Positions 20,194-53,906 of a stretch of DNA of 64,000 bases are shown here, piece by piece; the stretch's first letter is position 1, and each line of letters begins with the position of its first letter. Origin of the DNA: Prorocentrum cordatum. Lineage: Eukaryota; Sar; Dinophyceae; Prorocentrales; Prorocentraceae. The notes below the pieces were generated by a model. That model was not told the origin of the DNA, searched no databases, and worked only from the letters and a program-made list of their open reading frames with translations. The position numbers were made by a program, and so were the translations under genes. The stretch spans positions 119,501 through 183,500 of the forward strand of contig CAUYUJ010015701.1 of the NCBI GenBank assembly GCA_963575745.1, read 5' to 3'.

Positions 20194-20256
20194 GAGGTGC
20201 TGCGGCGGCTGGCCCACCCGCACATCGTCGCGTACTTCGACTTCTTTCAGGACTCG
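20194..20256 (+). CDS. kinase exon A: alphaC to beta4
   Basis: The frame reads EVLRRLAHPHIVAYFDFFQ then DS. This is the end of helix alphaC and strand beta4 of a Ser/Thr protein kinase, close to the HPNIV.Y..SF pattern of NEK kinases. The alphaC Glu that salt-bridges the ATP lysine should lie just upstream, but the upstream frame is not kinase-like. The exon therefore starts near GCGAGAG|GTGCTG (20,190-20,197), after an AG. It ends near GACTCGG at 20,251-20,257, and AGACTCGG recurs at the start of exon B. It belongs with seven further exons on the same strand. Confidence 0.75.
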
Positions 20257-20291
20257 GGGGGCATGGATCGGAGGCTGATGGACCTCCTACG

Positions 20292-20462
20292 CACCACCTA
20301 CCAAACCACCCCAACCCAACCCGAAGGCATCAATTTGCCCTCCATTTCTGGTGGTGGGGGGTTCGGAGAACATCGAAAAGACACGTATGGAACCCATACC
20401 CGTACACCCCCCAATCCGAAATTTGGGTCTTCAGGTTGGGTTGGGGTGGTCTGGTAGGTAGT
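20292..20462. mobile_element. inverted-repeat element at the start of kinase intron A/B
   Basis: ACCACCTACCAAACCACCCC (left) pairs with GGGGTGGTCTGGTAGGTAGT (right), and the arms continue for about 37 bp. It lies 35 bp downstream of exon A. Non-coding. Confidence 0.8.
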
Positions 20463-20942
20463 CACCTACCCCGACACGTCGATTCAGGAATCGGCCGTTT
20501 TCGGTTCGCGGGAGGGCGTCGCGGCGGTAATTTTTGCGGGTGCAGGTCCGTCGGTTTCGGCCCCAGGCCGTTCTCAGTAAGGGGAGGTGTACTATAAAGG
20601 GAGGTGTGTCCGACGCCGAGACTCGAGGGGCAGGAAGGGCACGCCCTCGCTGTTAGGAAGGCCTCCAAGAGGCCCCAAGAGGCCCCCACGAGGCCCAAAC
20701 GAGGCCTCGTTTGGGGCTCCCTTGGGCCTCTCTTGGGGCCCTTCCACGCTCTCTCGGTGCCATCTTGCGGCCTCGGACGTCATCGTTTCTGGCTCTCTGG
20801 CGATAACAGGCGTGACCCCGGGGGTGGGAGAGGGGGAGGGGGCCGGTCATGTCGCGATTCGCGCGGGCGCCGTCTGGGAAGGGCCAGGAACGGCTCATTC
20901 CCAGACGGCGCCAGCACGAATCGTCGACGTGACCGCGAAGGA
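20463..20942. repeat. two further palindromic segments
   Basis: 20,655-20,745 is a palindrome centred on CCAAACGAGGCCTCGTTTGG. 20,844-20,933 pairs GGCGCCGTCTGGGAA with TTCCCAGACGGCGCC and has outer GGTCATGTCG and CGACGTGACC. No gene. Confidence 0.7.
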
Positions 20943-21108
20943 TAAGTCGGGCATGTTCATCTACAGGAGGGATATTCAGGAATAGAAAACCAATATAGCA
21001 AGGTGACGGCTTGTCGTGCTCTTTTGAATATTTGATGATTTCCAGGTGGATTTGTTTTGAACACGTTTTCTCTCAAAATCCGCCTGTAGGAGGACATTCT
21101 CGACGTGA
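20943..21108 (+). mobile_element. MITE-A copy 2
   Basis: Left end ATAAGTCGGGCATGTTC and right end CGCCTGTAGGAGGACATTC, with a decayed terminus. CGACGTGAC occurs at the right end and again about 10 bp outside the left end. No clean 8-bp duplication. 21,109-21,353 holds nothing recognisable. Confidence 0.75.
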
Positions 21109-21353
21109 CATTGGGGGCTGAGCTGGGGGTGACGGGTTTGGTCATGGGCGCTATCGCGGATGACAACCAGGAGGGAAAGAAACACACAGACATAATCAAT
21201 CGTCGATTCCCCAGAACAGTATGGGAAGATATGGGAAGTGGGGGGAAGACGAAAACCCCCCAAATATGGGAAAACATAGGGTATTTTTGATTGGTGTGTA
21301 TTTATCTGTGTGTCCTTGGGCCCCTTCAGACAACCAACATTGTCTGGGGGGGG

Positions 21354-21452
21354 GGCAGGCCTCCCAGGTGGGCCGGAGCAGATGAGGTCCGAGGATCGCG
21401 CGGCATTGCTGGTGAATCGGCGATGCAGCGTGATCCTCCGGCCCCATCGGCT
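21354..21452 (+). mobile_element. inverted-repeat element, family R, copy 2 (short)
   Basis: Has the GGCCTCCCAGG start, GGTCCGAGGATCGCGC, one GGCGATGCA core unit and the GATCCTCCGGCCCCATC end. It lacks the long GATGCATCG centre of the other copies. Confidence 0.65.
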
Positions 21453-21455
21453 CGA

Positions 21456-21502
21456 GTTCCCTGTCGTCGCGCACTTCGACTGCCTCCAGCATTCGGGGGG
21501 GG
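21456..21502 (+). pseudogene. partial copy of kinase exon A inside intron A/B
   Basis: CGTCGCGCACTTCGACTGCC and the following CAGCATTCGGGGGG match the end of exon A at roughly 28 of 35 positions, reading VVAHFDCLQHSGG where the exon reads IVAYFDFFQDSGG. There is no HPH upstream. It is a duplicated, decayed exon end or an alternative exon. Confidence 0.5.
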
Positions 21503-21865
21503 GCCTCCGACGGCATGAGTTCTTCAGTTTCTGAGCTGTCTTCTCGGCTTCGGCTTTGGGGCTCGTTATCCGGCCCTGGGGGTTCACCAGAAGTGGATCC
21601 AGGACGAGGACCTGCCCTCGCAGGAGGTGTCGGGACCTCCAGGGGCCGCCCATTGGAGAAACAAACATCGCCGCATATTTGTACTCTCTCTTTCAGTAGG
21701 TGTGTTCGCCGTCGGTCGTCTTCGCCAGCGGTCGTCTCCACCTGTTGTTTTTCTTCGCCGGCGATCGTTTTCGCTCCTTCGAGGTGCTCGCTGACCCTTG
21801 CGGTTGGTCGCCTTCTCCCGGAGCGCTCTTGCCAGTTCTGGGAAATCGTGGACCAGGGTGATGAT
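21503..21865. other. no gene seen
   Basis: Moderately complex DNA with repeated GTCGTCTTCGCC and GTCGTCTCC units around 21,705-21,780. No motif was recognised. Confidence 0.4.
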
Positions 21866-22055
21866 GTTCCAACCTCTTTGAGCCTTGACCACCAGAACGA
21901 ACTTCGAGCACTAAGAAAAGACCGAAACTGGAGGGGTTTCACGTGCCGCGCCCTGGGAGGCGATAGTTACTCGTGCGAGACCGTTGCGACACTTTTCTGG
22001 GTGATCGAAATTAGTTCTGGGATGTGGTCCCTGAGTACGATGGGAGCAACATGTG
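21866..22055 (+). repeat. family C repeat, copy 1
   Basis: Conserved blocks: TTCCAACC, AGCCTTGACCACCA, GGGTTTCACGTGCCG, CGCCCTGGGAGGCGATA and TGTGGTC..GAGTACGATGGGAGC. Other copies are at 25,028-25,285, 49,120-49,315 and 63,537-63,670, with an inverted one at 22,905-23,125. Confidence 0.75.
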
Positions 22056-22246
22056 CCTCGGCTCGATCCTCCTCATCCGCGGACCTGGAAACGAACCGAA
22101 ACGCCCCCCATCTTTGCTAGCATCGATCCTCCTCATCCTCATCCTCGATCCTCCTTCTCCTCCTCATCCTCGGAGGCTCGATCCTCCTCGAACGTTTGGC
22201 CTCGGTCCGATCCTCCTCCTCGGAGGACGGCGGCGCCCTGCACGTC
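22056..22246 (+). pseudogene. partial copies of the kinase exon B head
   Basis: GGCTCGATCCTCCTC appears more than once, ending at 22,205-22,246 with TCCTCGGAGGACGGCGGCGC then CCTGCACGTC, almost the first 40 bp of exon B (SSEDGGALH). The frame then diverges (VASPTG) where exon B has IVLEY. As at exon B, a family C repeat lies directly upstream. Confidence 0.6.
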
Positions 22247-22296
22247 GCGTCCCCAACGGGAGCAACAGCAGACCAGGGCCGATGGTCCACAGGGTG

Positions 22297-22484
22297 TTAA
22301 CTACTCCAGATTTCGCTATAAAACGGAATGGGTCCCAACCCTCACAGACGGGCAATTCCAGACCCCCCCAAACAAGCCGTGCAGGGCGGCGTTGTGCCCA
22401 GACCCACTGGAACCGTCCAAGACGGCTCAAATCTGACCCCATCCCAAATCAGACCACCCCCCTTTTATAATCTGGAGTAGCCGA
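22297..22484. mobile_element. inverted-repeat element with CTACTCCAGATT ends
   Basis: CTACTCCAGATT with nearby TATAAAA at the left pairs with TTTTATAATCTGGAGTAG at the right. The interior is non-coding. Confidence 0.65.
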
Positions 22485-22904
22485 CTGTGCGAGTGCCTCG
22501 TCTGGCCCCGCGGGTATCGCACGCGACCCTGCGCCGGCCCGCGTCGCACCGCGTGCGACGTGGTGGCTTTTGCTTCGGGCGGACGAGCGCACGTTGCGTT
22601 GTCCGGTAGCAGCTCATGGGGGCCTTGTGTACCGTCGTGATCCTGTCTTCAGAGTGCATCGGCATCGATTACAGCGGAGGTTCATGCCCAAGAAACACCC
22701 CGCATGCCTCCAGGGTCTCCTGGGTGTGTTGGGTTTCGACGGTTTTTTGAGGAAGGCGTAACGTTCCCACCAGAAATCAATGGACGTCCGGGGGTCTCAG
22801 GGTTGGGCTTCTTGTGGAAGGTTTATTGTGGACTGGCCTCCACTGTACCGACGCGATTCTGTCTTCAGAGTGCATCCGCATCGACTAGCGCAAGTATGGT
22901 GATC
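22485..22904 (+). repeat. family J repeat, copy 1 (22,680-22,860), in unassigned DNA
   Basis: CACCCCGCATGCCTCC, TGGGTTTCGACGGTTTT, ATGGACGTCCGGGGGTCTCA and TGTGGAAGGTTTATTGTGG match the copy at 28,553-28,730 block by block. The surrounding sequence has no recognised gene. Confidence 0.65.
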
Positions 22905-23125
22905 GAGGAGATGGTGCCGATTTAGCTTCGATTGGCGTCGATGGGCGCCGATCAGCGTCGATGTTGCTCCAATCGTACTGGAGGACCACATCTCAAGACA
23001 ACTTCGAGCACCCAGGCAGGGTATGGAGGCACCGTCTGCCCGACGCGCCGGCGCGAAGTGTGGAAGGACAAGCGCCTTCCAGGGCCGACACGCGGAAGCC
23101 CTCCAGTTTCGGTAACGTCCTGGTT
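22905..23125 (-). repeat. family E tail and inverted family C copy
   Basis: AGCGTCGATT units (22,924-22,960) run into ATGTTGCTCCAATCGTACTG, the complement of the family C end, continuing to CCCTCCAGTTTCGGTAA. This C copy faces the opposite way from the other four. Confidence 0.6.
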
Positions 23126-23475
23126 CTCGAAATTCCTCCTCCTCCTCCTCCTCCTCCTCCTCCTCGGACTCCTCAGACTCCTCCTCCTCCTCTCCTCCTC
23201 CTCCTGCTCCTCCTCCTCGGAGCATCATAAAGGTTAGCGGTCGTGCACGGTTCGAGGGTCATCGGCGGGAGAGAGCGGAGCGGCGAGCCGGGGAGAGCCG
23301 AGCACCGGCCAAGAAATCTCGAAAGGCATGATGAAATTCGTTTTTTTTTTTTTTTGTGTGTGTGTGCGTGTGCGTGTGTGCGTGTGTGCGTGTGTGCGTG
23401 TGTGTGTGTGTGCGCGTGTGTGTGTGTGTGTGTGTGCGTGTGTGTGTGTGTGTGTGCGCGCGTGTATGTGCGTGT
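23126..23475. repeat. CTC microsatellite and T-run/(GT)n microsatellite
   Basis: CTC repeats run from 23,133 to about 23,220. From 23,340 a T-run leads into GT/GTGTGC repeats. Confidence 0.95.
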
Positions 23476-23555
23476 CGTCTTGTTTCGTGTTGCCCACTTG
23501 TTTCGAGCTGCCCCCCTGGTTGGTAAGTGAATCTCCTCTTGTCGGAGAAGACAAA

Positions 23556-23722
23556 CAACATAAACAGAATGGCGCTCCGCGCAGCTTTCTCGGGTCCGCG
23601 CTGGGCCCCCACCAGCGGCGCCAGAGGCGCCGCCCCTGGCGCGCTCCGCGCGCCAGGGAGGGGAGTTTCGGCGCAGATCCTAGAGACCGTGCGGAGCACC
23701 AAAAGTTTCCGTTTATGCCGCT
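23556..23722 (+). mobile_element. inverted-repeat element, family D, copy 2
   Basis: CATAAACAGAATGGCGCTCC pairs with GGAGCACCAAAAGTTTCCG and TTTATG. The core holds GGCGCCGCCCCTGGCGCGC. Followed by unassigned DNA to 23,985. Confidence 0.7.
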
Positions 23723-23984
23723 GTTTTTTTTTTTTCCATCTTGGGGGGGATCGTCCTTGGTTCTATGTCTTCACGCGGCCTCTGCTTCCACTGGAGCCTG
23801 CCGTTTTCAGGGTGTGGCCATGGCCCGGGTCCTATCGGACCCGCCCGCCCCCCTCCCGTGGATCACCTGCTCTCGTCGGCTGCGCAGGTCCGACGAGGGT
23901 GAGCAGCAGTGGTGCGCGCGGGCCTACGCCAGGCTACCCGACCCGACAAGGCTCGGCGGTCGGCCGACACCGTCTCCCCCCTAG

Positions 23985-24220
23985 GGGGCCCTGGAAACGA
24001 CAGGGCCGTTTGTTTCCTGGTTCCGTTTTGCAGTTTTTGTCCAGGTTCCGACGCCCTTTTTTTGGTTCCGTCGCCGTTGATTGACCGGTTCTGGCTCCGG
24101 TTCCGATCCTGGAGCCGTTTTTTTGCTGTTTCCGGTCGCCTTTTTTTTGCCGTTTCCATTTTCAAGGGACATTTTTTTTGGAAACAGTGAAAAAACGGCC
24201 CTGCCATTTCCGGGGCCCAC
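23985..24220 (+). mobile_element. inverted-repeat element, family I, copy 1
   Basis: Ends GGGCCCTGGAAACGACAGGG and CCCTGCCATTTCCGGGGCCC are inverse complements with few mismatches. The interior is made of AACGGC/CCGTTT-type units interspersed with T-runs. The only other copy, 41,628-41,872, is in the opposite orientation. Confidence 0.8.
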
Positions 24221-25027
24221 AAAGCACGAGAGTCTGAAATTGGAGCATACACATCACCAGTGGCGGGCTGTTTTTCAGTCCCAGGACTTTTTTTAGGGCC
24301 GGGGACGACGTCGGGGTGGTGTGGTGTAGATTTGTTTCCCCGTTTCCCGTGGCGAGAACGAAACATGTGTACACCAAAACCGCGTATACACCAGGATCCG
24401 TTTTCCTGTGCAAGTTTCGGTGCGGGGCCGGAAAAAGCGTCGGTGTATAGAGTTCGGCTCCTTAGAGAGTGCGCCTGCGTCTCACGAGAAAGTGTCGATG
24501 TAGCGTCGATTGGAGCAGATGTAGCGTCGATCCGCGTCGACTCAGCGTCGGTTAGCGTCGACGAGTGTCGATTCGCAGGAGCCAAGACATGGTACAGGAG
24601 GTTCCAGTGAGTTGCCACCAAGCCGCCTTCCCTATTCCTCTCGATGCCTTTCCCGGGGCCAGCTTTTCATCCCGAGCCGTGTTGTTGACCTTGGACGCCC
24701 GAAATGGGTACGGAACAAACATTGGGCACGAAAGACAACAGCAAATGCCGTCCAACACCGGCATAGGCCGCTGTTGGACAGGCGGCCCTTCTGTCTCACG
24801 TGGACGAGGCCCGTGGCGGCAGTGACAGCAAATCCTGCTCAAAAGGGGTAGGAGTTGCTGTCAGTTGTCGCACCCAACCTTTCCGTATCCACTTCGATCG
24901 TGCCGATTGGTGGTCCCGGGCCCCGAAGTTGGCCTCCAGACGGCCGAGTTGGGGACCAGCCGGGCGTCCCCCGGTCAAGAACGAGAAGCAACGAACCACC
25001 AAACGAAACGAGCACAGATTTTTGTGA
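24221..25027 (+). repeat. family E repeat copy (24,485-24,620) in unassigned DNA
   Basis: TAGCGTCGATTGGAGCAG and related units precede CATGGTACAGGAGGTTCC and GAGTTGCCACC. The remaining sequence to 25,027 has no recognised feature. Confidence 0.55.
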
Positions 25028-25285
25028 AGCGTGCCGGAACGCCTCCCAGCGTTATGATGTTCCAACCCGCTCCTAGCCTTGATCACCATAAAGAATTGCG
25101 AGCACCAAGAGAGTGCAGAAGCTGGAGGGCTCTCAAGTGCTGCGCCCTGGGAGGCGAAACTCGTTCGACACTGTTTCGATAACTAAGTTTTCTGGCTGCT
25201 CCTGATCCTTTCTAAGCTATGGTCCTCACGTGCGATGGGAGCCACTCAAACCACAACGCCCTCCCAGCGTTGTTGTTACGATCGT
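25028..25285 (+). repeat. family C repeat, copy 2, adjoining kinase exon B
   Basis: Bounded by near-direct repeats ACGCCTCCCAGCGTTATG and ACGCCCTCCCAGCGTTGTTG. It contains the family blocks GCGCCCTGGGAGGCGA and GATGGGAGCC. Its right edge lies six bases before the exon B junction, so it may be the end of the element that created this intron. Confidence 0.65.
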
Positions 25286-25290
25286 CGAAA

Positions 25291-25413
25291 GACTCGGCTC
25301 GATCCTCCTCGTCCTCGGAGGACGGCGGCGCCCTGCACATCGTCCTCGAGTACGCGGACGGGGGCGACCTGGCCTCGGACCTGCGGGCCCGCCCCGAGCC
25401 CTACGCGGAGAGG
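25291..25413 (+). CDS. kinase exon B: beta5, hinge and alphaD
   Basis: Reads DSARSSSSSEDGGALHIVLE and then YADGGDLASDLRAR. LHIVLEY is strand beta5 and the hinge, which contacts the ATP adenine. GGDL opens helix alphaD, as in NEK kinases (LYIVMDYCEGGDL type). Joined at the shared GACTCGG, exons A and B remain in frame. The 3' edge is uncertain: GAGCCCTAC at 25,396-25,404 is repeated exactly before exon C (28,099-28,107), but splicing there would break frame. A GC donor at 25,391 (after GCCC) would join in frame to exon C as RAPLPDQEAM. A GGA microsatellite follows within 50 bases. Confidence 0.85.
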
Positions 25414-25455
25414 GACCCCCCCCCGCTGCGGCCGTCCCCGCGAGGAGGGTGGGGG

Positions 25456-25605
25456 GCGACGAGGAGGAGGAGGAGGAGGAGGAGGAGGAGGAGGAGGAGG
25501 AGGAGGAGGAGGAGGAGGAGGAGGAGGAGGAGGAGGAGGAGAGGAGGAGGAGGAGGAGGGGGAGGGGGAGGAGGGGGAGACGAGGAGGAAGGCGAAGCTC
25601 AGAGG
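25456..25605. repeat. GGA microsatellite
   Basis: About 130 bp of nearly pure GGA with a few GGGGGA interruptions at the 3' side. Confidence 0.95.
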
Positions 25606-25654
25606 AGGAAGCATGTGCCGATGCCGCTGCCCTGGCCTTGCTTCGGGGCACCAG

Positions 25655-25806
25655 AGACGGGGTCGATGCGAACTGGGGTCAGGCAGAGCGCCCGATCATC
25701 TTGCAGGATCCTGCAGCGCCAGGGTGGCATTGACCCGGGCTTGGGCACAGGATCCTGCAGGCTACTGCAGGATTTTGCGCGATCCTGCAAGGCCCGGGTC
25801 AGTAGG
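25655..25806 (+). repeat. family H repeat, copy 2
   Basis: ATCTTGCAGGATCCTGCAGC, TTGACCCGGGCTTGGG and repeated GATCCTGCAGG match the copies at 8213 and 48,164. Confidence 0.65.
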
Positions 25807-25916
25807 TCCCCGATGTCTGTTCACCTTTGTGGGCCTCCCGGGAGCCCCTCGCCGTCACCGCTGCAGTCGCCTCGACGCACGGTGGTCAGAACGCAGCCCG
25901 GCAGACGAGGAAACCG

Positions 25917-26155
25917 GCACAAGCGTAACTGTTCGGCGGCCAGCGCGGATCTTTTTGATTTGCCCTCGACCCTCCCTCCTCCTCCAACTCCTCCACCACC
26001 TCCCTCTCCTCCTTCTCCTCCTCCTCCTTCTCCTCGTCCTCCCTGGCGGCGTCTCCGGCGCCGCCCTTGGCGCACTCCGCGCGCCTGGGAGGAGGGTCCA
26101 GCACCCGCCGATCCCAGAGATCCGCGCGGCCCAGCGAAAGTTTATGTTTATCCAG
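25917..26155 (+). mobile_element. family D element with CTC microsatellite inside, copy 3
   Basis: The GC core (GGCGTCTCCGGCGCCGCC, then GGCGCACTCCGCGCGCC) and the right end with AAGTTTATGTTTATCC are family D. Between the left end and the core is about 70 bp of CTC repeats absent from copies 1 and 2, an expansion inside the element. Confidence 0.65.
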
Positions 26156-26774
26156 CCGTTTGCGGCAAGCCCCGCAAACCGCGCCTGTGCAGCAGCGCAG
26201 CAGGAAGGGGGCCGAGTGCAGGAACAGCGCAGTTCCGACGAGTAGTTCTACAGTTGGGCGGGGCGGGTCGTGGTCCCGACCTCGCCTTCGTCCGCGCGGC
26301 AGGTAGAAGAGCGGGGAGGAGAGGGAAAACATGAACACGGGGAGGGGAAGAGGCTTCCTTTGGGGCCTCGTGGGGTCTCCTCGGAGCTTCCTCGGGGCCT
26401 TCCTGGGGCTTCCTCGGGGCCTCCTGGGAGCTTCCTGAAAGCTTCTTGTGGGCCTCCTTGGGGCCTCGTGGGGTCTCTTGGGAGTCTCTTGGGTCCTTTT
26501 GGACCGTCTTAGGGGGCTCTTGGTCCGTCTGACGCCTATGGAGGCCGCCTTGGGGACCTCTCTAGGCCGCGTTTGTGCCCTCTCGGAGCGGCTTACGGCC
26601 GTCTTGGGGCCTCTTGGAGCCCAATAGGCGATCTTTGGGTCCTCTTGGGCTCTCCTCGAACCCTCTTGGGGGCCTCTTGGAGGCTTCTAGGGCCGTCTTG
26701 AGCAGTGGGAAACCCGAACAGGTGAGAACCTCAAAATCTTCCAACAAGTCAAGGACAATCAGTGCTCCAGGAAG
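26156..26774. repeat. degenerate GGGGCCTC-type repeats
   Basis: From about 26,340 the sequence is built of imperfect TTGGGGCCTCGTGGGGTCTC-like units with drifting spacing. 26,156-26,340 is unassigned. Confidence 0.6.
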
Positions 26775-26946
26775 GTCTCTTGAAGCTCTCTCGGGCTGTC
26801 TTGGGCCTCTTTGGTCGTCTTGAGGCCCAAGACAGCTCAAGAGTCTCTCAAGATAGGCGAAGAGGGCCTCAAGACGGCCAAAGAGGCCCAAGACAACCCG
26901 AGAGAGCTTCAAGAGACCTCTTGAGAGACTCTTGAGCTGTCTTGGG
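26775..26946. repeat. two interleaved inverted repeats (A-B-A'-B')
   Basis: Arm A (26,775-26,827, TTGAAGCTCTCTCGGG..) pairs with A' (26,862-26,917, ..CCCGAGAGAGCTTCAA). Arm B (26,827-26,856, AAGACAGCTCAAGAGTCTCT) pairs with B' (26,917-26,946, AGAGACTCTTGAGCTGTCTT). Because B lies between A and A', the two stems interlock like a pseudoknot. Confidence 0.8.
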
Positions 26947-27554
26947 CTGCTTAGAAGCGGCCTGCTTCGAGGAAGCCTTTCCCCCTCCTCCAGCCTCTTT
27001 TTGCGCGCCGCCAAGCATTGCCCCGTGGCTTCAATGGTGGATGGAAAAGGACCCCTTCAGTGCCCTTTTCTTCATCCCCCGTGTAGGCCACCCCCCATTT
27101 CCACCCGCCCTCGAATCCAGGGGTCGGGGCATCTGGGGTCGTGCACTGAATCTTAACCTCATCCTTGGAAGTCTGGACGGAAGCAGAGGACGACGAGGTA
27201 CCGATACCGCCAGCTCTCCCTCGCTCTCCTATTTTTCCAGGGCTTCCTGGGTGGCCCTCGTCGCCACCGCTGGATTCGCTTGTACACCTTAGGCGACGAA
27301 CAAGAAAACTTAAGTTTTCGGCCAGAGTTTCGATTATTCTAAATGTTTCAATTTAATTCCTGAGATTTTGATAGAAATTCTGGGTTTTCATTAAATTCTG
27401 AGACTATGAATTTCTTAACCCATGATTTCTTAAGCATTTCGCAGGGTGTAATTTTGGTCAGAACGCGACCCGGAAAAGGTCCGGGGAGTAGCGGTTTCGA
27501 ATGGGCACGTTGGTCACAGCCGCCACCGGCCAGGGCGGCCGATCCAGGCTGGTG
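26947..27554. other. no gene seen
   Basis: AT-richer DNA at 27,300-27,450. A segment with GGTCAGAACGCG and GGGGAGTAGCGG (27,459-27,505) is also found at 50,700-50,750. No motif. Confidence 0.45.
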
Positions 27555-27716
27555 TGAAGTCGGGCACGTCCCTCTGCAGGAGGAAAGTTCAAACATAGTC
27601 AAAACATAGTCTGGGGACGATTTTGGTTCCTAGGTTTGAGTTTTTTTTTGCGTATGCTTGGTGTCTTGTTCATGATTCGTCGAAAATCTGCCTGCAGGGG
27701 GACATGCCCGAACTAA
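27555..27716 (+). mobile_element. MITE-A copy 3 (162 bp) with perfect 8-bp target duplication
   Basis: Starts TGAAGTCGGGCACGTCCC and ends GCCCGAACTAA. GGCTGGTG is present at 27,547-27,554 and 27,717-27,724. The internal block CATAGTCTGGGGACGATTTT is intact. This is close to the shortest, least modified form of the family. Confidence 0.95.
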
Positions 27717-28101: not shown

Positions 28102-28171
28102 CCCTACCGGACCAGGAAGCCATGCGCGTGTTCGGACAGTGCTTGCTCGCGTTGAGATACATCCACAAAAG
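28102..28171 (+). CDS. kinase exon C: helix alphaE
   Basis: From 28,104 the frame reads LPDQEAMRVFGQCLLALRYI then HK, matching helix alphaE of NEK-type kinases (..WF.QICLALKHVHDR). It ends CACAAAAG|GTCAGC, a canonical GT donor at 28,172. Joining to exon D after GCGAG gives HKRRIVHRD in frame with a phase-2 junction, the cleanest junction in the gene. The acceptor is TTCTGAG|CC at 28,101, giving a phase-1 entry. This exon fixes strand and order: it lies between the hinge exon and the HRD exon. Confidence 0.85.
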
Positions 28172-35854: not shown

Positions 35855-35876
35855 GCGGATCGTGCACCGGGACATC
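35855..35876 (+). CDS. kinase exon D: HRD (22 bp)
   Basis: GCGGATCGTGCACCGGGACATC follows GCGAG, an AG acceptor. With exon C's last two bases it reads R-RIVHRDI, the HRD motif with the catalytic-base Asp. Only 22 nt long, it may be among the smallest exons here. The next residue must come from exon E: the local sequence continues AEAAK, which is not a kinase catalytic loop, while exon E supplies KSQN. GGGACATC at the exon's end is echoed by CGGGCATC immediately before exon E. Confidence 0.85.
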
Positions 35877-36073
35877 GCGGAGGCTGCTAAGAGTGCTCCT
35901 GGCCCAGGGTGCCCCCGCCTCCTCCTCCTCCTCCTCCTCCTCCTCCTCCCCCTCCTCGTCCTCCCGAGCTCCCCGGGACTCGTGAAAGTGTTCTCCGGGG
36001 GGCGGGGGTGGGCTGGCTAGACAATCTGGGGGGCACCTTGGGCCAGGGGCTCTTCTAGCAACACCCGGGCATC
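35877..36073 (+). mobile_element. 197-bp intron that is itself an inverted-repeat element (introner candidate)
   Basis: The left arm GGCTGCTAAGAGTGCTCCTG plus GCCCAGGGTGCCCC (35,882-35,915) pairs with the right arm GGGGCACCTTGGGCCAGGGG plus CTCTTCTAGCAAC (36,029-36,062). A CTC microsatellite fills the loop. The arms begin about 6 bp and end about 11 bp from the exon junctions. Flanking octamers GGGACATC and CGGGCATC match at 6 of 8. Removing the element and one octamer restores HRDIKSQN. The right arm also resembles the MITE-A copy 4 target at 44,085-44,101 and 46,108-46,130, so other copies exist. Confidence 0.75.
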
Positions 36074-36121
36074 AAGAGCCAGAACATCTTTCTCACGAGC
36101 GTCCGCGACGTGAAGTTGGGG
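36074..36121 (+). CDS. kinase exon E: catalytic loop, beta7-beta8
   Basis: The frame reads KSQNIFLTSVRDVKLG, completing HRDIKSQNIFLT. It provides the catalytic-loop Lys and the Mg-binding Asn, in the spelling typical of NEK kinases. It ends TTGGGG|GAGCCC, which implies a GA donor (used in dinoflagellates beside GT and GC). Exon F begins GAC TTC GGC after GGGAG, giving KLG-DFG in frame. GGGAG is present at both edges. Confidence 0.88.
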
Positions 36122-43179: not shown

Positions 43180-43290
43180 GTGCTGTGCTGTGCTGTGCTC
43201 TGCTGAGCTCCGCTGAGCTGTGCTGTGCTGTGCTGTGCTATTTTGTGCTGTGCTGTAGTCTGCTGTGCTGTGCTGTGCTGTGCTGCTGTG
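43180..43290. repeat. GTGCT pentamer microsatellite
   Basis: GTGCTGTGCTGTGCT with GAGCTCCGCT variants, then GTGTCTGTGTGTG. Confidence 0.9.
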
Positions 43291-44093: not shown

Positions 44094-44101
44094 CCTTGGG
44101 C

Positions 44102-46107: not shown

Positions 46108-46115
46108 CCTTGGGC

Positions 46116-47236
46116 CAGGGGCAGCCTCAGCAACCCCAGACCGCTCAAACGCACTGCTTGCCAATGTTTGGGCCTTGGGGTGGACAGGGCTCGTGTCGAT
46201 TCCTCCGATTCGATTCGATTCGACTTCGATGACATCTGATTCCGATTCGATGCGACTTGGGATTCCGATTTGGTTTCCGATGCCTGCCTATTGGAGGCAT
46301 ACCAGCCTGCCGATGTCCGCCGATGCGTTTTTTCCCGACTTGGCTGCCGATTTTCGCCGATCTGATTCATTTCGATCGCCGATCTGACTTATTCGATTCG
46401 ATTCTGGGCTGTCCTGGGTGGAGGGGGTAATTGAGTTCGTTCTAGTTGGAGCGCGGTTGTTGCAAAGTCGCTTCCTGCAGCCGCAGTGGCCCTCCTTTCC
46501 TTCGGCCCTTTCAGCCACACGCAGAGGGTGGTAGGGGGAGGGGAGTCTTTTGAGGAGTGCCCCTGCTTCTTAGTAGGCGCGGGCACGGTCTGTAGATAGG
46601 TGCCAGGCCGGCACCTTCTGAGAAGCAGTTTTCTTTTAAGAAGCCTTTCCCCCTCCCCCTGGCCACCTTCACAGACATCCGGCGCCTCGTTTTATTCGAG
46701 ACGGGCCAGCGACCTCCCGATCGCTTTCCTGGGACGGGCTCCTCATCTCGAGTCGTTGTTTGACGGCCCCGAGGCCCAGCAAAGGTCCCCAGGAGGCCGA
46801 TCATCATGAAAGGCCTCCGTCTCGATGTTTTTTTTAACGCCAGGATCTCAGGTGATTAGGTGATCGCTTTTTTATTCATTGGTTTGCCGATCGGCGCGGG
46901 CCCTTGCACCCCCTCCCCCTCCTCATGGAGTCGATCTTGGCTGTTTTTGGTGCCTGTTTCAGGCAGGTTGGAGTCTCCCCCACAGGACGCACTGCTGCAA
47001 GCGGTCGCTTCAAGCAGAGGTCTGGAGCCAGACCCCCCTTCCCCCCTTCCGCCCAATGTCGAACGCCGAGTAAGAAAAAAACTCACTAGTGTTTTTCCCT
47101 CCTCCACCGCCTCCTCCTCCTGCTCGCCCCGATGTTGTTTTGTTTGTTCGAGATGTCCGGGGGAGGCCTGGGCTGCGCGCTCGCCGCCAGCCAGTCCTCC
47201 TGACGCCCGCCCTTTCCTTCGGCAGCAGACCATTCA
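46116..47236. other. no gene seen
   Basis: 46,200-46,400 is rich in TTCGATTCGATT. 46,690-46,810 contains an inverted copy of part of 29,195-29,250 (GTCGTTTGACGGCCCCGAGG). 47,090-47,236 resembles the flank at 6544-6737. Confidence 0.45.
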
Positions 47237-47389
47237 CCAGCCTCGAACGTATCCCTATCCCTAGGATTGACACGCTAAAAGGAGATGACAATCTTAGGGA
47301 TGCACCCTCAGAAACTGAGGAAATCCCTAAGATCGCTTTCGTGATAAGGCGATGCCCAACATAGGGATAGGGATATGTTCCAGGCTGGT
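47237..47389 (+). mobile_element. inverted-repeat element, family F, copy 2
   Basis: CCAGCCTCGAACGTATCCCT and AGGGATATGTTCCAGGCTGG are near-perfect inverse ends. Inner blocks AATCTTAGGGATG and AAATCCCTAAGATC pair too. This is the best preserved copy. Confidence 0.88.
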
Positions 47390-47404
47390 AAATCATGGGA
47401 GCTC

Positions 47405-47520
47405 GGAGCCGCGAATCATCAGGGGTCATTCGGGTCAGGGCTAACTCGGGAACGTTGTGCGGGAATCCGAGCCCGAGTTACCCCAGGCCCCAGTTACCCC
47501 GGATAACTCGTGCGCCCAAT
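47405..47520 (+). repeat. GAGTTACCCCGG/CGGGGTAACTC repeat, family G, copy 1
   Basis: GAATCATCAGGGGTCATTCG, GTCAGGGCTAACTCGGG, GGGAATCCGAGCCCGAGTTA and GGATAACTCGTGCGCCCAA. Two tandem copies are at 61,596-61,828. MITE-A copy 5 directly abuts its right edge. Confidence 0.7.
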
Positions 47521-47680
47521 GTAAGTCGGGCCTGTCCCTCGACATGAGGAATATCCAAGATTAGTCCCAACATGGTCTTGGGACGATCTGTTTGAATATT
47601 TTTACTATTTTTGAGTTTTTCTTTTGAGGGGGGGTGTTTGTAAGTTGAAATCGGCCTGTTGGAGGACATGCCCGACCTAA
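47521..47680 (+). mobile_element. MITE-A copy 5 (160 bp)
   Basis: Starts GTAAGTCGGGCCTGTCCC, holds ATGGTCTTGGGACGATCTG and ends ATGCCCGACCTAA. No flanking duplication was found, so one end or its flank has changed. Confidence 0.85.
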
Positions 47681-47694
47681 TGTTAATTACGTCT

Positions 47695-47960
47695 TTGCCG
47701 TCGGCTAGCGTCGATTTGCCTCTGGAGTCGATGCGGTAGCGACGATTTGGCGTCCGTTAGCGTCGATGTAGTGTCGACTGGCGTAGATTTAGTTCCGAAT
47801 TAGCGTCGATTATCGTCGATTAGCGTCTGGGGGCGATGGCATAGCGCCGACTCAGCGTCGATTTGGCGTCGATTCGCGTCGCCTGGGCGTCGCTTCACTC
47901 GCGCCGATCTCGCGTCGATTCTCGCACGAGCCGACGAGATGGTATGGGAGGCACTCCCAG
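47695..47960 (+). repeat. family E repeat, longest copy
   Basis: Some 20 AGCGTCGATT-like units in 230 bp, then GACGAGATGGTATGGGAGGC. 47,961-48,163 is GC-rich and unassigned. Confidence 0.65.
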
Positions 47961-48163
47961 GAGCTCTCCCCGAACCCTCCCGCGGGCGGCGGCGGCGCCG
48001 CCGCCCTGGCTGCCGCGACCGGCGCCCCCCCCCTGCTGCGCGGGCGGGCGCGCGCCCCGCCTCTGCGCGCGCGCAGGGCTCCGGGGAGACGTGGGACTCG
48101 AGGGGTCCGTACCGCTGCACCGGCTCCCCCCTCCCCAGCCCCCCATCGGGAGTTTTGAGACGG

Positions 48164-48390
48164 GGGTCAATGCAGACGGGGGTCAGCCGGGGCGCCGGAT
48201 CCTGCAGGATCCTGCGAAGGCCCCTGCTGGCTGACCCGGGTCAGGGAGCCGCTCGTGGCCGCGAGGCGGCCGCACACATTGGCTGACCCCGGTTTTCGAA
48301 GACCTGGGTTGCAGTTTTTTTGTTTCCTGCATAGCAGTTTTTTGGTTTCCTGCTGACCCGGGTCTGGATTGACCCGGGTCAGAAGATCCC
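48164..48390 (+). repeat. family H repeat, copy 3
   Basis: GGGGGTCAATGCAGACGGGG, GGATCCTGCAGGATCCTGCG, GGCTGACCCGGGTCAGG, then a duplicated GCAGTTTTTTNGTTTCCTGC pair. Confidence 0.65.
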
Positions 48391-48436
48391 CGACCCCCAG
48401 CCCCCTCGGGACCCCCACTCCATTTTCAGCGAGCTA

Positions 48437-48598
48437 AGAACGGTATAAGATAAACTTTCCGCCGTCGGGGACACCTGCCCCTGGGCGGCTGGAGTGTTTT
48501 TATACCCCTACGGTGCCACCGTGAGGTGATAAACTTTCCAGCCGCCCTGGGGCAGGATTCCCCGACGGCGAAAAAGTTTATCTTATACCGTTCTCCGC
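48437..48598. mobile_element. nearly perfect 160-bp inverted repeat
   Basis: GAACGGTATAAGATAAACTT and its complement AAGTTTATCTTATACCGTTC form the ends. CGCCGTCGGGGA/TCCCCGACGGCG and CTGCCCCTGGGCGGCTGGA/TCCAGCCGCCCTGGGGCAG continue the stem to a loop of about 45 bp. A MITE or a long hairpin transcript; found once. Confidence 0.85.
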
Positions 48599-48967
48599 CC
48601 GCTGAAATTTGCCACCCCAGTTGGGGATACACCCCTCGAGACCCGAAGGGGGCGGCCCATGCCCCCATCCATGGGGGCAAGTCGGCCCGTGGGCCCCGGG
48701 CTCCGCCGCTGGGGATGGGGCTCGGAGGAGCGATACGCGATCCAGCCGGCGCTCGGGCGTCCGGACGTTTTTGGACGAGCGCGTCCTGGATCCTGACGGT
48801 CCCGTTTTGTTCGTGGGACGTTTGCCGAGGGAGCTCGCGTCGGATCTCGGATCGGCCCCCGCCACTCCTCTGACGACCCCGTCTGGCCAGCCCGAGTCCT
48901 CCGCACCCGGGTCTCACGTCTCCCCGGACGAAAAGGCCCGCCCACGCCCCGCGCCCCCCCCTGGAAG

Positions 48968-49027
48968 GAGCCGACGGAGCTCGTGGGCACCCCGTCGTTC
49001 CTGGCGCCGGAGATGTGCCCAGAGGGG
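48968..49027 (+). CDS. kinase exon G: P+1 loop and APE
   Basis: Reads EPTELVGTPSFLAPEMCPEG. GTPSFLAPE is the end of the activation segment (GTP.Y.SPE in NEKs) with the APE Glu that anchors to the C-lobe Arg. The acceptor is TGGAAG|GAGCCG. On the 3' side GGGGGTAC (49,024-49,031) resembles GAGGTAC before exon H, but splicing exactly there would change frame, so the donor is unresolved. 48,600-48,967 upstream is GC-rich with no other kinase motif. Confidence 0.85.
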
Positions 49028-49119
49028 GGTACAGGAAAAGAATCACTGAGCTCCTGGCGTTCCGGTCAAACCAAAGTATCGAGACGGAGTTTGTTCATAG
49101 TTTCCGGCCTCTGGGGCCA

Positions 49120-49315
49120 TACTGTTCCAACCTTCCCTTCGCCTTCAGCACCAGAAAAGGATTTCGAGCATCAAGAACATACCCAAACTTGACGGGTTTC
49201 ACGTGTCGGGCCCTGGGAGGCGATATTCGTTCGACTCTGTTTCGATACTGTTCTGGATGCTCGAACTTCTTTCTGGGATGTGGTCCTCAAGTACGCTGGG
49301 AGCAACATTACTCTG
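49120..49315 (+). repeat. family C repeat, copy 3, downstream of exon G
   Basis: CTGTTCCAACCTTCC, GGGTTTCACGTGTCGGGCCC, TGGGAGGCGATATTCG and GATGTGGTCCTCAAGTACGC. It lies about 90 bp after exon G, in the same orientation as at exon B. Confidence 0.75.
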
Positions 49316-49527
49316 GGGGCCCTTTTCGCGGGCCTCGTGGGGCCGTCGGAGCAAAAAGAGACTCTGGAAGAGAAAAGCCGGTCCCGGGAGAGTGGTGGGG
49401 GAAAGGCCGGGGGCACACGTTTCGGAGACAAAAAAGCCGAAGGCGAGACACGGGAGGTCTCGGGGGCGGCCAAGAGGGGGACGATGACCAGGGATGGGTG
49501 GGCATCACTCGGAGGGAAAAAAAACAC

Positions 49528-49650
49528 GCCATGAGCAGAAACTTTTGGCGGTGCGCGCGGATGTCTTGTATCCGCGCTGGGCCCCCCCTGGCGGCGCCTC
49601 CGGCGCCGCCCCTGGCGCGCTTCGCGCGCCGGGGAGGGGCCATTCTTCTA
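49528..49650 (+). mobile_element. inverted-repeat element, family D, copy 4 (right end lost)
   Basis: AAACTTTTGGCGGTGCGCGC leads to the GGCGGCGCCTCCGGCGCCGC core and GGCGCGCTTCGCGCGCC. The matching right arm is absent. Confidence 0.65.
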
Positions 49651-49778
49651 TTCATGGCGTGGGCCATGATATTTCCTCAGATTGCATGGTGCCTCTACTT
49701 ATTTGGAGTTGCGCCCTGCCCTCTTGGACGCCCCCCTCTTGGCCGCCCCAGAGTTTCTGGAAGGTACCCCTATCTCTA

Positions 49779-50023
49779 GGCCTCCTGGATGGGGTCGGAG
49801 TAGATGGGGTCGGAGGATCCCGCCGCATCGCCGAAGCATCGGCGATGCTGCTCGATGTGCAGCCCGATTTGCTTCACGTCGACGTCGCCGATGCATCGCC
49901 GACGTCGACGATGCATCGCCAGTGCATCGCCGATGCATCGCCCATGCATCGCCCATGCATCGCCGATGTATCGGCGATGCGGCGCGATCCTCCGACCCCA
50001 TCCACTCCGACCCCATCCATGAG
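49779..50023 (+). mobile_element. inverted-repeat element, family R, copy 3
   Basis: GGCCTCCTGGATGGGGTCGG and GGATCCCGCCGCATCGCCG pair with CGGCGATGCGGCGCGATCC and CCGACCCCATCCATGAGG. The centre has about eight CGCC(G/C)ATGCAT units, the longest central array of the family. Confidence 0.8.
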
Positions 50024-50218
50024 GTTTCTACTATCGAACGGGGTTCGGACGGGGACAAATCCGTTCCAGAGCGTTCCGGAACGCGCTCTCAGATTCTTCG
50101 AGGACGCTCTGAGGGGAGTGCGACGCACGATGCATCCTCCAGAGCCTCCAGATCGCAGAGGTTCTCAATCTATCCTCACCCAATTTTATCCTGATCCTGG
50201 TTCTGTTTTGCCATTTTG

Positions 50219-50628
50219 TTAACCTCAGGAAGGCATTAAGAACCCCCCCCCTTTTCCGGTGGATTATAACGCCCCCGCACCCTGGAGCGTTATGGCCGCA
50301 CCGGAAGACCTGGCTGAGGGGACTCGGGGCCTAGCTAAGGCCTGCCAAGCGCAGATTTGCTCCTGCCAAGCAGTGCTTGGCAGAGTTTAGCAAGGCTTTG
50401 CAAGACGTGCCAGGGATAAAGGTGCACAAAGATCTGGGCTAGATCCTTGACATTCGTCACGACACCCTCTCTTGGCGTTAGTGGGGCGGCCGCCGATGGT
50501 GGATTTTGTTTTCTGTGTGCGGCGGGTGCTAAGTGTATCGTTCGGCTAAAACTGCCCGCCTGGAATATTGAGAAAACCGGGTGCTAAGAATAACCCAGGG
50601 GGGTTTCTTAATGCCTTCCTGAGGTTAT
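50219..50628. mobile_element. 410-bp inverted-repeat element
   Basis: TTAACCTCAGGAAGGCATTA with AGAACCCCCC pairs with GGGGGGTTTC plus TTAATGCCTTCCTGAGGTTA. The interior is unique and non-coding. Confidence 0.85.
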
Positions 50629-50944
50629 CCTTCCATTGTTTTCCCCTTGCTGGGGAATCGGGAGTCCCCCGCCGCTTCGACTGGATCCGCCTCGAGATTC
50701 TGGTCAGAACGCGCCTCGGCAGAGGTCTGGGGAGTAGCGGTATCGATATGTTTGGTTTCCCCGAGTTGTTGGGGTGGCCCGGGGCTAGGGCTGCCCATGT
50801 TTCAGCCCTCCCACCTCGCCACGGGGCTCGCTCGCGCTCGTACAATAAAGTGCCCCTGGGTGGGAGAGGTTGATGAGGCTTCGGGTGTTGCGCACAGACA
50901 TCCCCCCCCAGGTAGTCCCAGCTGGCGTCAACGGGCCCCTCGGG

Positions 50945-51275
50945 TAGTCGCCCAGCTGGCCTCAGTAGGCCCCCCCAGGGCCCCTGGTAGTCAGGGCCGG
51001 TCTCAACACCCTGGTGCCGCCTCCGGCGGCGCCCCTGTGGGTGCTCCGCGACACGGGGTTGTGTGGCAGGGCTGGACCTAAACGCTGTTTCGCTGGACTT
51101 TTGCTGTGTCTTGTTTTCCGCTTTGGGAGGCAGGTACAGGAACACAGGCACAGTAAAACGAACAATAAAAAGGCAACAACATGACAAACGACGTTTAGGT
51201 TCAGCCCCTGGTTGTGGCGTTGAGACCGTCCTGGAGGACTACTTAGGGGGCCCTGTTGAGGCCAGGTGGGGCTGC
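50945..51275. mobile_element. 330-bp inverted-repeat element
   Basis: AGCTGGCCTCAGTAGGCCCC, CCGGTCTCAACACC and GGGCTGGACCTAAACG pair with CGTTTAGGTTCAGCCC, GTTGAGACCG and GGGGCCCTGTTGAGGCCAGG in reverse order. The arms are about 130 bp with indels. Confidence 0.8.
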
Positions 51276-52545
51276 CCAGGGGAGCCGCCTGCGCGCAGCC
51301 CGACGCCTCAGAGGAAGTTCGCTGACCTCCTCCCGTCGCGAAGAAGTCACGACGGTCGGATTTTCGTAACCTTCGGCCTCGGCTCCAGGAAGGGGATGTT
51401 GTGTCCTCTGCGGTGGTATAGAGCCAACACGCCTCAAACGCATGCCGACATAATGTTGATGTAAGTCTGAAATACGTGTTCAGGGTTCCAGACATGGTTT
51501 CGCCGAAAGCAGGCCCTCACAATTCAACAGGTGAGTTCGAATGTTTGTATGGTGTTGCTTCATGCGTTTCCTCAACAACGCAGCCGATGAGTTAATTTAG
51601 TCCAATGTCTTATGTGTTGCGCATTGCTTCGGGTATATGTTTTGCCATTGTGTGCACTAGCCTGGGCGAATGATTCGTTCGAATCAGTGCATTCGTTAAC
51701 ACTGGTTTAGGCAGTACCTAGTGTATGGGCAATGCAAGTTGTTAGTTCGACTGATGTTGACCATTCATGATTTGTGCCGTCCAACATTCATGACGTGTGC
51801 AAGCGACTACGAAGTATTCCCAACATATACGATTCAGTGTTAATCAGTGCTCTATAGTTGGACACTGATGTATTTGATTAGTTAGTTAAACCATTGCAGT
51901 ACGGTTCAGTTCATGCATGGCTATTTGTTGTGACATGGATTGGTCATTGCTCCACCAAGCTCGACCTGAGATGAACCACTGATCACGGGGAAGGGGTCCA
52001 GACCATGGAAGGGTCCACGTCGTGAACAAACAGACAGGGCACCCGATGGGCCTGGGTTCCCCCGCGAAGACCCCCGAAGCAAGCGTCCCGAGAGGGCCCC
52101 AGAAGGGGTCCACGTCGCAGACAGGACTCGCAACCACTCGCACCAGACGCGAGGGGCCACGTGAGGGCTCCTCTGGATGCACGAAGCCCCAACCGAGCCC
52201 CGAGAAAGGTCTAAGGGGCCCAGACTGAGCTCTGGGGTGGGTTTGGGCGCCCGAAGAGAACACTGAACGACTTCCAAAGAGGTCCCGAGAGGCCTGGCAG
52301 CATGGCTGTCTATGGTTGCCAGCGTCCGTCTGCCCGCGGCCGGTCAGGGGCGGCCGCTTCGCCAGGCTTACCAGCCGCAGCCAGTCCACAGTCCTTGGGG
52401 AAAGTGTTGCGCAGGGGTGGGTGGGGTGGAAATCTTTCCCCACCCTCGGAGGGGAAGATGGGCTGGACGCCGTACCTCGTGAAGCCGCCTGCGCCCACAG
52501 GGCTGGTGCGGTAACGACCACTGTCGTCGGTTCGGTGGGGCATCG
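51276..52545. other. longest stretch with little repeat content; no gene recognised
   Basis: 51,450-51,960 is of intermediate base composition, without microsatellite or inverted repeat and without an ORF above about 60 codons. 51,960-52,545 is open on the minus strand (up to 211 codons) but has no recognised motif. Confidence 0.45.
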
Positions 52546-52698
52546 CCGGCCTGGAGCATATCCCCATCCCTATCATTGGCACCGCCTCATCTCGATGCAG
52601 ACCTGGAGGGTTCCCTTAGTTTCTGAGGGCGCGTCCCTGAGATTGTCATCGCCTCGTGGAATGTCAATCTTAGGGATGGGGATGGGTTCGAGGCTGAT
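52546..52698 (-). mobile_element. inverted-repeat element, family F, copy 3 (diverged)
   Basis: CCGGCCTGGAGCATATCCCC and GGGGATGGGTTCGAGGCTGA are the ends. Its inner blocks match the complement of copy 2 better, so it is placed in reverse orientation. Confidence 0.7.
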
Positions 52699-53861
52699 TA
52701 GGGGAGGCGGGGGAGGCATGTTGTTATCCAGTGGCATCGCGTTTACACCGAGAGGCGGAAGGGGTGAACATTGGTTGACGAGGGGCAGCATCACACGCTG
52801 GGGGATCGGTGGGTGGGGTGGGGGTGAGCTGTCGGGCGGTGGGGGCTACAGGAGAAGAAGTATCGGGAGGCTGACAATCGAGGAGGAGGAGGAGGAGGAG
52901 GAGGAGGAGGGGAGAGGAGCAGGAGGAGCAGGAAGGAGGGAGAGGCAGGGGGAGGGGGAGGGGGAGGGGGGGGGGGATCTGATGAAACGCCTTGGTCTGC
53001 AAGGCCCGCTACCTAGGCAGACGCCTCTCGGGCCTACGCCGAGACGCTGTGCTGAGCCAGTGCCCAGCGAGCAAACGAGGGGAATCCAGCGAGGCGACGA
53101 GGAAGCCAGAAACCCAGGGAGGACCCAACGGCCCACGAAAAAATCGAGGAGTATCCAGCGGCGGCGACGATGCCCCAGGCCAAGCCCCAATGGGCGCAAG
53201 CCACCTCCGAGCCCAGGATCAGACCTCGACCTTGAAGACGGCTTGCCCTGCTGCAAACAGCTCTAGATACTCCTGGTGTTGGCCACCCCTTCATGAAGAC
53301 TACCCTCACGATGACGACACTTTCCACCAGCACGGCCTTGCCGAAGAGCCCTCGTTTCCCGGCCTTGATCGCATACTTTTGGCGGGTCTTGATCATACCT
53401 ATGAAAACGACCTTGCCGAAAAGCCAACACGGAGGGGGAGGAGCAGGAGGAGGAGGAGGAGGAAGAGGAGGAAGAGGAAGAGGAACAGTAAGAAGGACGA
53501 ATCAGGGGTGGTTCGGCTGGCCAGGACGTATTGCTGACTCTGGGGCCCAGGACGCAGCCTCCCTCGCTCGTCCCAAGGTGCGTTGCTCTTGGATGTCCAG
53601 CGCCTGGCTGGCAGCACGCCTCCTGCAATGCCCGCCATCCGCTTGTGCTGCCTCTGGGACCGCCGCGTGACAAGCTCTGAATCCAAGCGACGAGGAGGAA
53701 GAGGAACGGGCAAGAGGAGGAGGAGGAGGATCATGCGTAGAAGTAAACATAGTCGAAGGAGGAGGAGGAGGATGAGGAGGAGCTGATACGGAGGAAGACG
53801 AACGATGAGGCCTCGGAGACGAGAACGCAGGGCGGACCAAACGGGCAGGTGCACGAACGAG
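52699..53861. other. intron G/H end: GGA clusters, no other gene seen
   Basis: GGA/GGGGGA at 52,880-52,975 and GGA at 53,430-53,490 and 53,760-53,780. 53,000-53,420 has open frames on both strands without a motif. Confidence 0.4.
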
Positions 53862-53906
53862 AGGTACGACGGCAAGGTCGACATCTGGGCGCTGGGAGTC
53901 GTCTTG
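53862..53906 (+). CDS. kinase exon H: helix alphaF
   Basis: Reads RYDGKVDIWALGVVL. DIWALG is the alphaF motif that anchors both kinase spines, in the NEK spelling (SDIWALGCVLYEL). The acceptor may be ACGAG|AGG. After VVL the sequence continues PLAAP, not YEL, so the exon ends about here, but no clean donor is visible. The next C-lobe parts (alphaG to alphaI) were not found nearby; the sequence enters a GGA array and then LINE D at 54,190. A possible later piece is at 62,281-63,050. Confidence 0.82.

What the first reader, a model, noticed from the sequence alone, without database searches (positions are those of the whole stretch)
20194..53906. One NEK-like kinase gene spread over more than 33 kb in exons of 22-123 nt
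Eight plus-strand pieces occur in catalytic-domain order: HPHIVAYFDFF, LHIVLEYADGGDL, GQCLLALRYIH, RIVHRDI, KSQNIFLTSVRDVKLG, DFGIAKVM, VGTPSFLAPEMC, YDGKVDIWALGVVL. Seen in sequence: the pieces, their order and strand, and in-frame joins for A/B, C/D, D/E, E/F and F/G. Known: these spellings (KSQNIFLT, LGDFGIA, DIWALG) are typical of NEK kinases. Inferred: that they form one gene. Coding DNA is well under 2 percent of the span. Gene finders would probably miss it because long microsatellite ORFs swamp each exon.
Basis: partly seen in the sequence, partly recalled or inferred. Interest (0 to 1): 0.9.

Follow-up and report, generated by a model that had tools for sequence, protein, structure and literature searches.

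The report
Dinoflagellate double-kinase gene, middle exons
Eight tiny coding pieces scattered over 34 kb are the middle of a real protein-kinase gene of a dinoflagellate-type alga; that is ordinary for such giant genomes, except that one short intron, cutting through the catalytic loop, looks like an inserted hairpin element and lacks the usual splice signal.

Summary
In detail: all eight pieces lie on the + strand in the stated order. Joined, they give 139 residues identical (139 of 139) to residues 371-509 of P0121, a 982-aa protein on a 3,033-base public contig that leaves no room for introns and is probably a transcript. So it is one real gene, not retrocopy debris. The window holds the middle of the SECOND of two tandem NEK-like kinase domains; named two-domain relatives are dinoflagellates, one rodent model apart. 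Other parts of the gene were not found in the window. Introns (mean 4.76 kb), GA/GT-AG^G junctions (6 of 7) and 58.7% G+C fit the published Prorocentrum cordatum genome; the species is unproven. Large span and tiny exons are normal there. The unusual part is intron D/E (197 nt), between HRDI and K of the catalytic loop. None of its five equivalent junctions ends in AG; it is bounded by a CATC repeat with 39-nt inverted repeats 1 and 2 nt inside, the layout published for non-canonical introners of the parasitic dinoflagellate Amoebophrya. Overall: a new member of known kinds, with a testable lead on AG-less introns.

The parts
20197..20250 (+). Exon A: VLRRLAHPHIVAYFDFFQ
   Evidence: Identical to P0121 371-388; preceded by AG, followed by GA
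25321..25413 (+). Exon B: DGGALHIVLEYADGGDLASDLRARPEPYAER
   Evidence: Identical to P0121; intron A/B 20251-25320 GA-AG
28116..28171 (+). Exon C: EAMRVFGQCLLALRYIHKR (last codon shared with D)
   Evidence: Identical to P0121; intron B/C 25414-28115 GA-AG
35855..35876 (+). Exon D, 22 nt: RIVHRDI, with the catalytic HRD
   Evidence: Identical to P0121; intron C/D 28172-35854 GT-AG
35877..36073 (+). Intron D/E, 197 nt, non-canonical, introner-like
   Evidence: Five equivalent placements, none with AG at the end
35873..35876 (+). 5' copy of the direct repeat CATC (also coding, end of exon D)
35878..35916 (+). 5' inverted-repeat arm of intron D/E, 39 nt, 79% complementary to the 3' arm
36029..36067 (+). 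3' inverted-repeat arm of intron D/E
36070..36073 (+). 3' copy of the direct repeat CATC
36074..36121 (+). Exon E: KSQNIFLTSVRDVKLG
   Evidence: Identical to P0121
40457..40495 (+). Exon F: DFGIAKVMQDTLQ, with the DFG motif
   Evidence: Identical to P0121; intron E/F 36122-40456 GA-AG
48968..49014 (+). Exon G: EPTELVGTPSFLAPEMC (last residues shared with the GTGC repeat at H)
   Evidence: Identical to P0121; intron F/G 40496-48967 GA-AG
53849..53905 (+). Exon H: (C)TNERYDGKVDIWALGVVL, ends at a likely GC donor
   Evidence: Identical to P0121 up to residue 509; intron G/H 49015-53848 GT-AG; the 3' end of H is inferred from TT^GC

Best explanation
The window carries eight consecutive internal exons of an intact dinoflagellate-type gene for a protein with two tandem NEK-like serine/threonine kinase domains; they encode profile positions 53-195 of domain 2. 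Shown: the joined exons equal P0121; the catalytic residues are kept in both domains of the family. Inferred: P0121 is a transcript of this or a very close species; six introns are removed by the dinoflagellate spliceosome (GT or GA donors, AG^G acceptors); the seventh, D/E, began as a small inverted-repeat element inserted into the exon with a CATC duplication and is removed exactly, leaving one CATC, with its inverted repeats pairing to bring the exon ends together. The protein most likely works as a linked pair of NEK-type catalytic domains; its role in the cell is not known. My odds by step: one real gene 0.97; D/E joined inside CATC 0.75; hairpin-guided removal 0.3.
For: 139 of 139 residues identical to P0121 371-509, 131 of 139 to P0122. 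Top 7 of 973 profile hits are the exons, in order and on one strand. Each of 6 introns has a GT-AG or GA-AG placement among its 4 to 8 equivalent ones, always followed by G. HRDxK lysine in 25 of 25 first domains, 25 of 25 second domains and 201 of 201 single domains, so the D/E junction must leave K. D/E: CATC repeat with inverted repeats 1 and 2 nt inside, as published for Amoebophrya strain A120. Model of P0121 shows two kinase-like segments.
Against: The DNA behind P0121 was not seen, so transcript and species are inference. The D/E hairpin is only modestly stable for its composition (z -2.40, 3 of 200 shuffles as good), and its score of 39 lies under the 99th percentile (41) of 150 random pairs in this microsatellite-rich window, though above the 95th (17). 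At its span, 97 of 63,804 positions score as well. No second copy of the element was shown, and the published repeats are 8-20 nt, shorter than 39. First and last parts of the gene were not found.
Confidence: 0.6

Rival explanations
1. Intron D/E is an ordinary intron of this genome with an odd junction (GC donor without AG, or an assembly error at its 3' end); the inverted repeat is one of many hairpins and plays no part in removal.
For: Hairpins abound in this DNA: 206 inverted pairs of 28 nt or more within 500 nt, many of them microsatellite (25 longest listed). One of the five placements has a GC donor, the commonest donor in Prorocentrum cordatum, 51.4% (PMC10666404, passages).
Against: An inverted repeat this good fits the ends of a 197-nt span at 97 of 63,804 positions (about 1 in 100 after looking at seven introns). 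The CATC repeat and its spacing match the Amoebophrya layout.
Confidence: 0.35
2. Intron D/E is removed with a GA...AG pair (donor after GACATCGCG, acceptor after CATCAAG), so that this locus encodes HRDIASQN: a second domain with its catalytic-loop lysine changed to alanine.
For: Read from the sequence: these dinucleotides exist at those places and keep the frame.
Against: P0121 has K there, and K is kept in 25 of 25, 25 of 25 and 201 of 201 rows.
Confidence: 0.07
3. The locus is a decayed or silent copy, and P0121 comes from another, intact copy.
For: The N-lobe and C-lobe exons were not found in 20 kb upstream and 10 kb downstream; dinoflagellates often carry duplicated genes (PMC10666404, passages).
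Against: 139 of 139 residues identical and no frame break; three retrotransposon-like frames fill part of the upstream DNA, and the neighbouring introns reach 8.5 kb, so distant exons are expected.
Confidence: 0.05

Closest known systems
NEK (NIMA-related) protein kinases, nearest solved NEK1
   Different: Two catalytic domains in tandem in the relatives; only the middle of the second lies in the window.
Two-domain NEK-like proteins of dinoflagellates (for example 'nek3' of Symbiodinium natans, P0133)
   Same: Same architecture and second-domain sequence.
   Different: P0121 is only 35-53% identical to 21 of the other 22 aligned proteins, 85% to P0122.
Introner elements of Amoebophrya (PMC7789003)
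   Same: Intron bounded by a short direct repeat, inverted repeats just inside, no fixed end dinucleotides.
   Different: Inverted repeat 39 nt and imperfect against 8-20 nt; host has introns of several kb and GA/GT donors; no family of copies shown.
Introners of Symbiodinium microadriaticum (PMC9860276)
   Same: 4-bp duplication and terminal inverted repeats (passages).
   Different: Those carry a 3' splice site of their own; D/E has no AG at its end.
Nonconventional introns of euglenids (PMC4770533, PMC6221363; abstracts in a search listing only)
   Same: No conserved borders; secondary structure brings the intron ends together.
   Different: Unrelated lineage; no sequence comparison made.

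Membership tests
Protein kinase domain (Pfam PF00069) | Match above the curated cut-off | tested here: met
Protein kinase domain (Pfam PF00069) | HRD, DFG and APE motifs in the window exons | tested here: met
   HRDIK, DFG, APE in exons D/E, F and G
Protein kinase domain (Pfam PF00069) | Glycine loop and the N-lobe lysine | tested here: inconclusive
   Not found in the window; present in P0121
NEK kinases | Closest to NEK kinases among kinase families | tested here: met
   Solved structures: NEK rows first; tree had NEK-like rows only, so no outside family
Dinoflagellate gene | GT, GC or GA donor with AG^G acceptor | tested here: met
   6 of 7 introns, choosing among equivalent placements; D/E is the exception
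Dinoflagellate gene | Source organism named | not testable with these tools
   14 genome-search runs unanswered; nearest proteins unnamed
Introner element (intron D/E) | Inverted repeats at both intron ends and a 3-5 nt direct repeat at the junctions | tested here: met
   length of the inverted repeat exceeds the published 8-20 nt
Introner element (intron D/E) | Many similar copies as introns in the same genome | not testable with these tools
Introner element (intron D/E) | Removal from the transcript observed | tested here: inconclusive
   P0121 lacks it at the protein level; no reads or cDNA letters seen

The most novel reading that the evidence does not exclude
A dinoflagellate with large introns and an ordinary GA/GT-AG spliceosome also has AG-less introns that are cut out exactly by hairpin pairing at a direct repeat, as in Amoebophrya and in the manner of euglenid nonconventional introns. 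Two ways of intron removal would then act on one pre-mRNA, the second inside the catalytic loop of a conserved kinase.
Probability: 0.3. Interest if true: 0.75.

Novelty: new member of a known kind. Interest (0 to 1): 0.42.

Why it matters
The gene shows how an intact, probably transcribed kinase can be 98.8% intron over the stretch seen, which matters for annotating such genomes. Intron D/E gives a sharp test: a 197-nt segment whose exact removal is demanded by the most conserved kinase motif, while none of the five placements that give this product ends in AG. If its junction is confirmed, hairpin-type introns with non-canonical ends are not confined to the parasitic Amoebophrya among dinoflagellates. 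The two-domain NEK protein is an architecture worth a functional look.

Tried and rejected
Guessed joins: I first joined B to C and G to H by the usual spacing in relatives, which gave wrong residues (queries); P0121 corrected them. Missing parts of the gene: tblastn, profile scan, ungapped six-frame comparison and exact 5-mers showed no N-lobe, first-domain, C-lobe or tail exon in the window; very short exons could escape. A GRGAF match at 55899 was judged chance on reading its surroundings; matches to the acidic tail are microsatellite. Copies of the D/E element: a match at 46107-46137 scores 28.3 bits, and 8 of 44 random window pieces do better; an exact 24-nt piece has no match in viral contigs. 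Relatives of P0121: 1 stretch in viral contigs and 9 in genome contigs matched a pattern, none confirmed. A repeat in the P0121 tail: 8 of 300 shuffles align as well, though the model shows two similar runs of helices. Rfam at gathering scores and tRNA scan: nothing. Naming the species through a retrotransposon frame: best hit 92% over 54% of the query, unnamed. Roy et al. 2023 on dinoflagellate introners and Mendez et al. 2015 are not held and were not read.
Full report
OBSERVATION. A NEK profile built from relatives found (no window sequence in it) was run over the window's reading frames of 12 residues or more on both strands. Of 973 hits the seven best are exactly exons A, B, C, E, F, G and H, all + strand, collinear over profile positions 53-195, at 21.8 to 5.0 bits; the eighth has 2.3 bits. 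The relatives had been found with the exons' own translation, so the profile is not fully independent; order and strand are.

ONE GENE. A protein search admitting longer candidates listed 120 of 725 hits; the best is P0121 (JGI source, unnamed, 982 aa, contig 3,033 bases), 94% identical to my draft. Comparison with the window corrected two joins. With the corrected joins 417 nt in eight exons give 139 residues identical to P0121 residues 371-509, 139 of 139; P0122 has 131 of 139. 982 codons on 3,033 bases leave no room for introns, so P0121 is most likely read from a transcript of this or a very close species. That is inference: its DNA could not be fetched. Coding makes up 1.24% of the 33,710-nt span.

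ARCHITECTURE. P0121 has two kinase domains, residues 44-306 and 318-579 (Pfam); the window encodes the middle of the second. Of the 234 proteins listed (capped lists of the best 120 each), 26 have two domains. Those with an organism in the listing are dinoflagellates: P0001 (taxid 133427, Protoceratium reticulatum), P0002 Durusdinium, P0127 Polarella, P0133 Symbiodinium, P0134 Effrenium, and P0138, whose label symbB I take from recall to be Breviolum; the exception is P0144, a rodent gene model that may fuse two neighbouring genes (recalled, not tested). In the 25 without P0144, the catalytic Asp, the HRDxK Lys and the DFG Asp are present in 25 of 25 first and 25 of 25 second domains; the DFG Phe is changed in 2 of 25 first domains, and the N-lobe Lys is present in 23 first domains with 2 gaps. 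In a tree of 63 rows (18 of the 25 two-domain proteins with both domains, and 27 single-domain rows, chosen by me) most first and most second domains form two neighbouring groups inside a well supported clade of 52 rows that also holds 16 single-domain rows. Two of those, P0003 and P0004, fall among the second domains, and one first domain, P0143, falls outside the first-domain group, as do P0139 and P0141. D1 needs 2 changes and D2 3, so one internal duplication is likely but not proven. The model of P0121 (23-row alignment) has mean pLDDT 73.4, pTM 0.53, two kinase-like segments, a disordered linker and a helical tail; no fold search was run.

INTRONS. Seven introns of 5070, 2702, 7683, 197, 4335, 8472 and 4834 nt, mean 4756. 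Because the junctions lie in short direct repeats, each can be placed in 4 to 8 equivalent ways. Six have a placement GA-AG (A/B, B/C, E/F, F/G) or GT-AG (C/D, G/H), and I chose those; in each the acceptor is followed by G. Window G+C is 58.7%. For Prorocentrum cordatum the published values are G+C 59.7%, mean intron 4,709 bp, mean gene length 24,462 bp, mean exon 239.9 bp, donors GC 51.4, GT 24.7 and GA 23.8%, AGG acceptors 79.7%, and introns enriched in introner elements (PMC10666404, passages). The window fits that kind of genome, except that its exons are shorter than that mean and no GC donor is used between the eight exons (one is likely after exon H); no call identifies the species. A gene of this span is therefore ordinary there.

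INTRON D/E. The mRNA must read HRDI-K-SQN: P0121 does, and K is present in 25 of 25 first, 25 of 25 second and 201 of 201 single domains. The only ways to join D and E so are five placements inside the repeat CATC (35873-35876 and 36070-36073); their end dinucleotides are CA-GG, AT-GC, TC-CA, CG-AT and GC-TC, none with AG. Inverted repeats of 39 nt, 79% complementary, lie 1 nt after the 5' CATC and 2 nt before the 3' CATC. At this span repeats as good occur at 97 of 63,804 positions, 62 of them not low-complexity, in 7 clusters of which D/E scores lowest. The other six introns score 10-14 against 39 for D/E; in 150 random pairs the 95th percentile is 17 and the 99th 41, because of microsatellites. 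The RNA fold is -110.8 kcal/mol, z -2.40, 3 of 200 shuffles as good: modest. In Amoebophrya strains A25 and A120 more than 60% of introns are non-canonical without fixed end dinucleotides; about 11% and 30% of these have inverted repeats of 8-20 nt and direct repeats of 3-5 nt, in A120 mostly four nt upstream of and within two nt downstream of the inverted repeats (PMC7789003, sections 10 and 11 read; passages). Symbiodinium introners have 4-bp duplications and terminal inverted repeats but carry their own 3' splice site (PMC9860276, passages). D/E thus has the Amoebophrya layout in a gene of another dinoflagellate type. I read it as an inserted hairpin element removed exactly; that the hairpin guides removal is inference.

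LITERATURE. Searches that might have shown an AG-less introner in a core dinoflagellate were made, and for a two-domain NEK in dinoflagellates (the last found no paper). I saw neither in the listings or in the passages read (also PMC11453091, passages). Roy et al. 2023 on dinoflagellate introners is not held, so this is no proof of novelty.

SURROUNDINGS. Upstream of exon A lie three reverse-transcriptase frames, at 2467-6540 +, 11292-12869 - and 15625-17856 +, the last behind an endonuclease frame at 14598-15755 + (10 of 287 filtered frames tested). No other part of the kinase gene was found in the window. The window's own assembly could not be searched.

VERDICT.

Noticed in passing
window 2467-6540 +, 11292-12869 -, 14598-17856 +: Three retrotransposon-like frames upstream of exon A: reverse transcriptase at 8.8e-8, 1.5e-34 and 3.8e-24, endonuclease at 2.1e-10; the last is 92% identical over 54% to an unnamed environmental protein.
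   Followed up: partly
window 44106-44130 and 46079-46103: A 25-nt, 88% inverted pair encloses a 1.4-kb AGGCTG-type array at 44486-45901 inside intron F/G; perhaps one mobile element.
   Followed up: no
window 49781-50024, 26773-26919, 7140-7315, 18220-18384, 19819-19955: Long near-perfect hairpins that are not microsatellite, 56-68 nt arms at 87-96% complementarity; they look like small inverted-repeat elements.
   Followed up: no
P0121 residues 713-957: The modelled tail shows two similar runs of five helices, each ending in a long one; sequence support for a repeat is weak (8 of 300 shuffles as good) and Pfam shows no domain there.
   Followed up: partly
introns F/G (40496-48967) and A/B (20251-25320): Their junctions sit in direct repeats of 7 nt (AGGAGCC) and 5 nt (AGGAC), perhaps traces of old insertions.
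   Followed up: no
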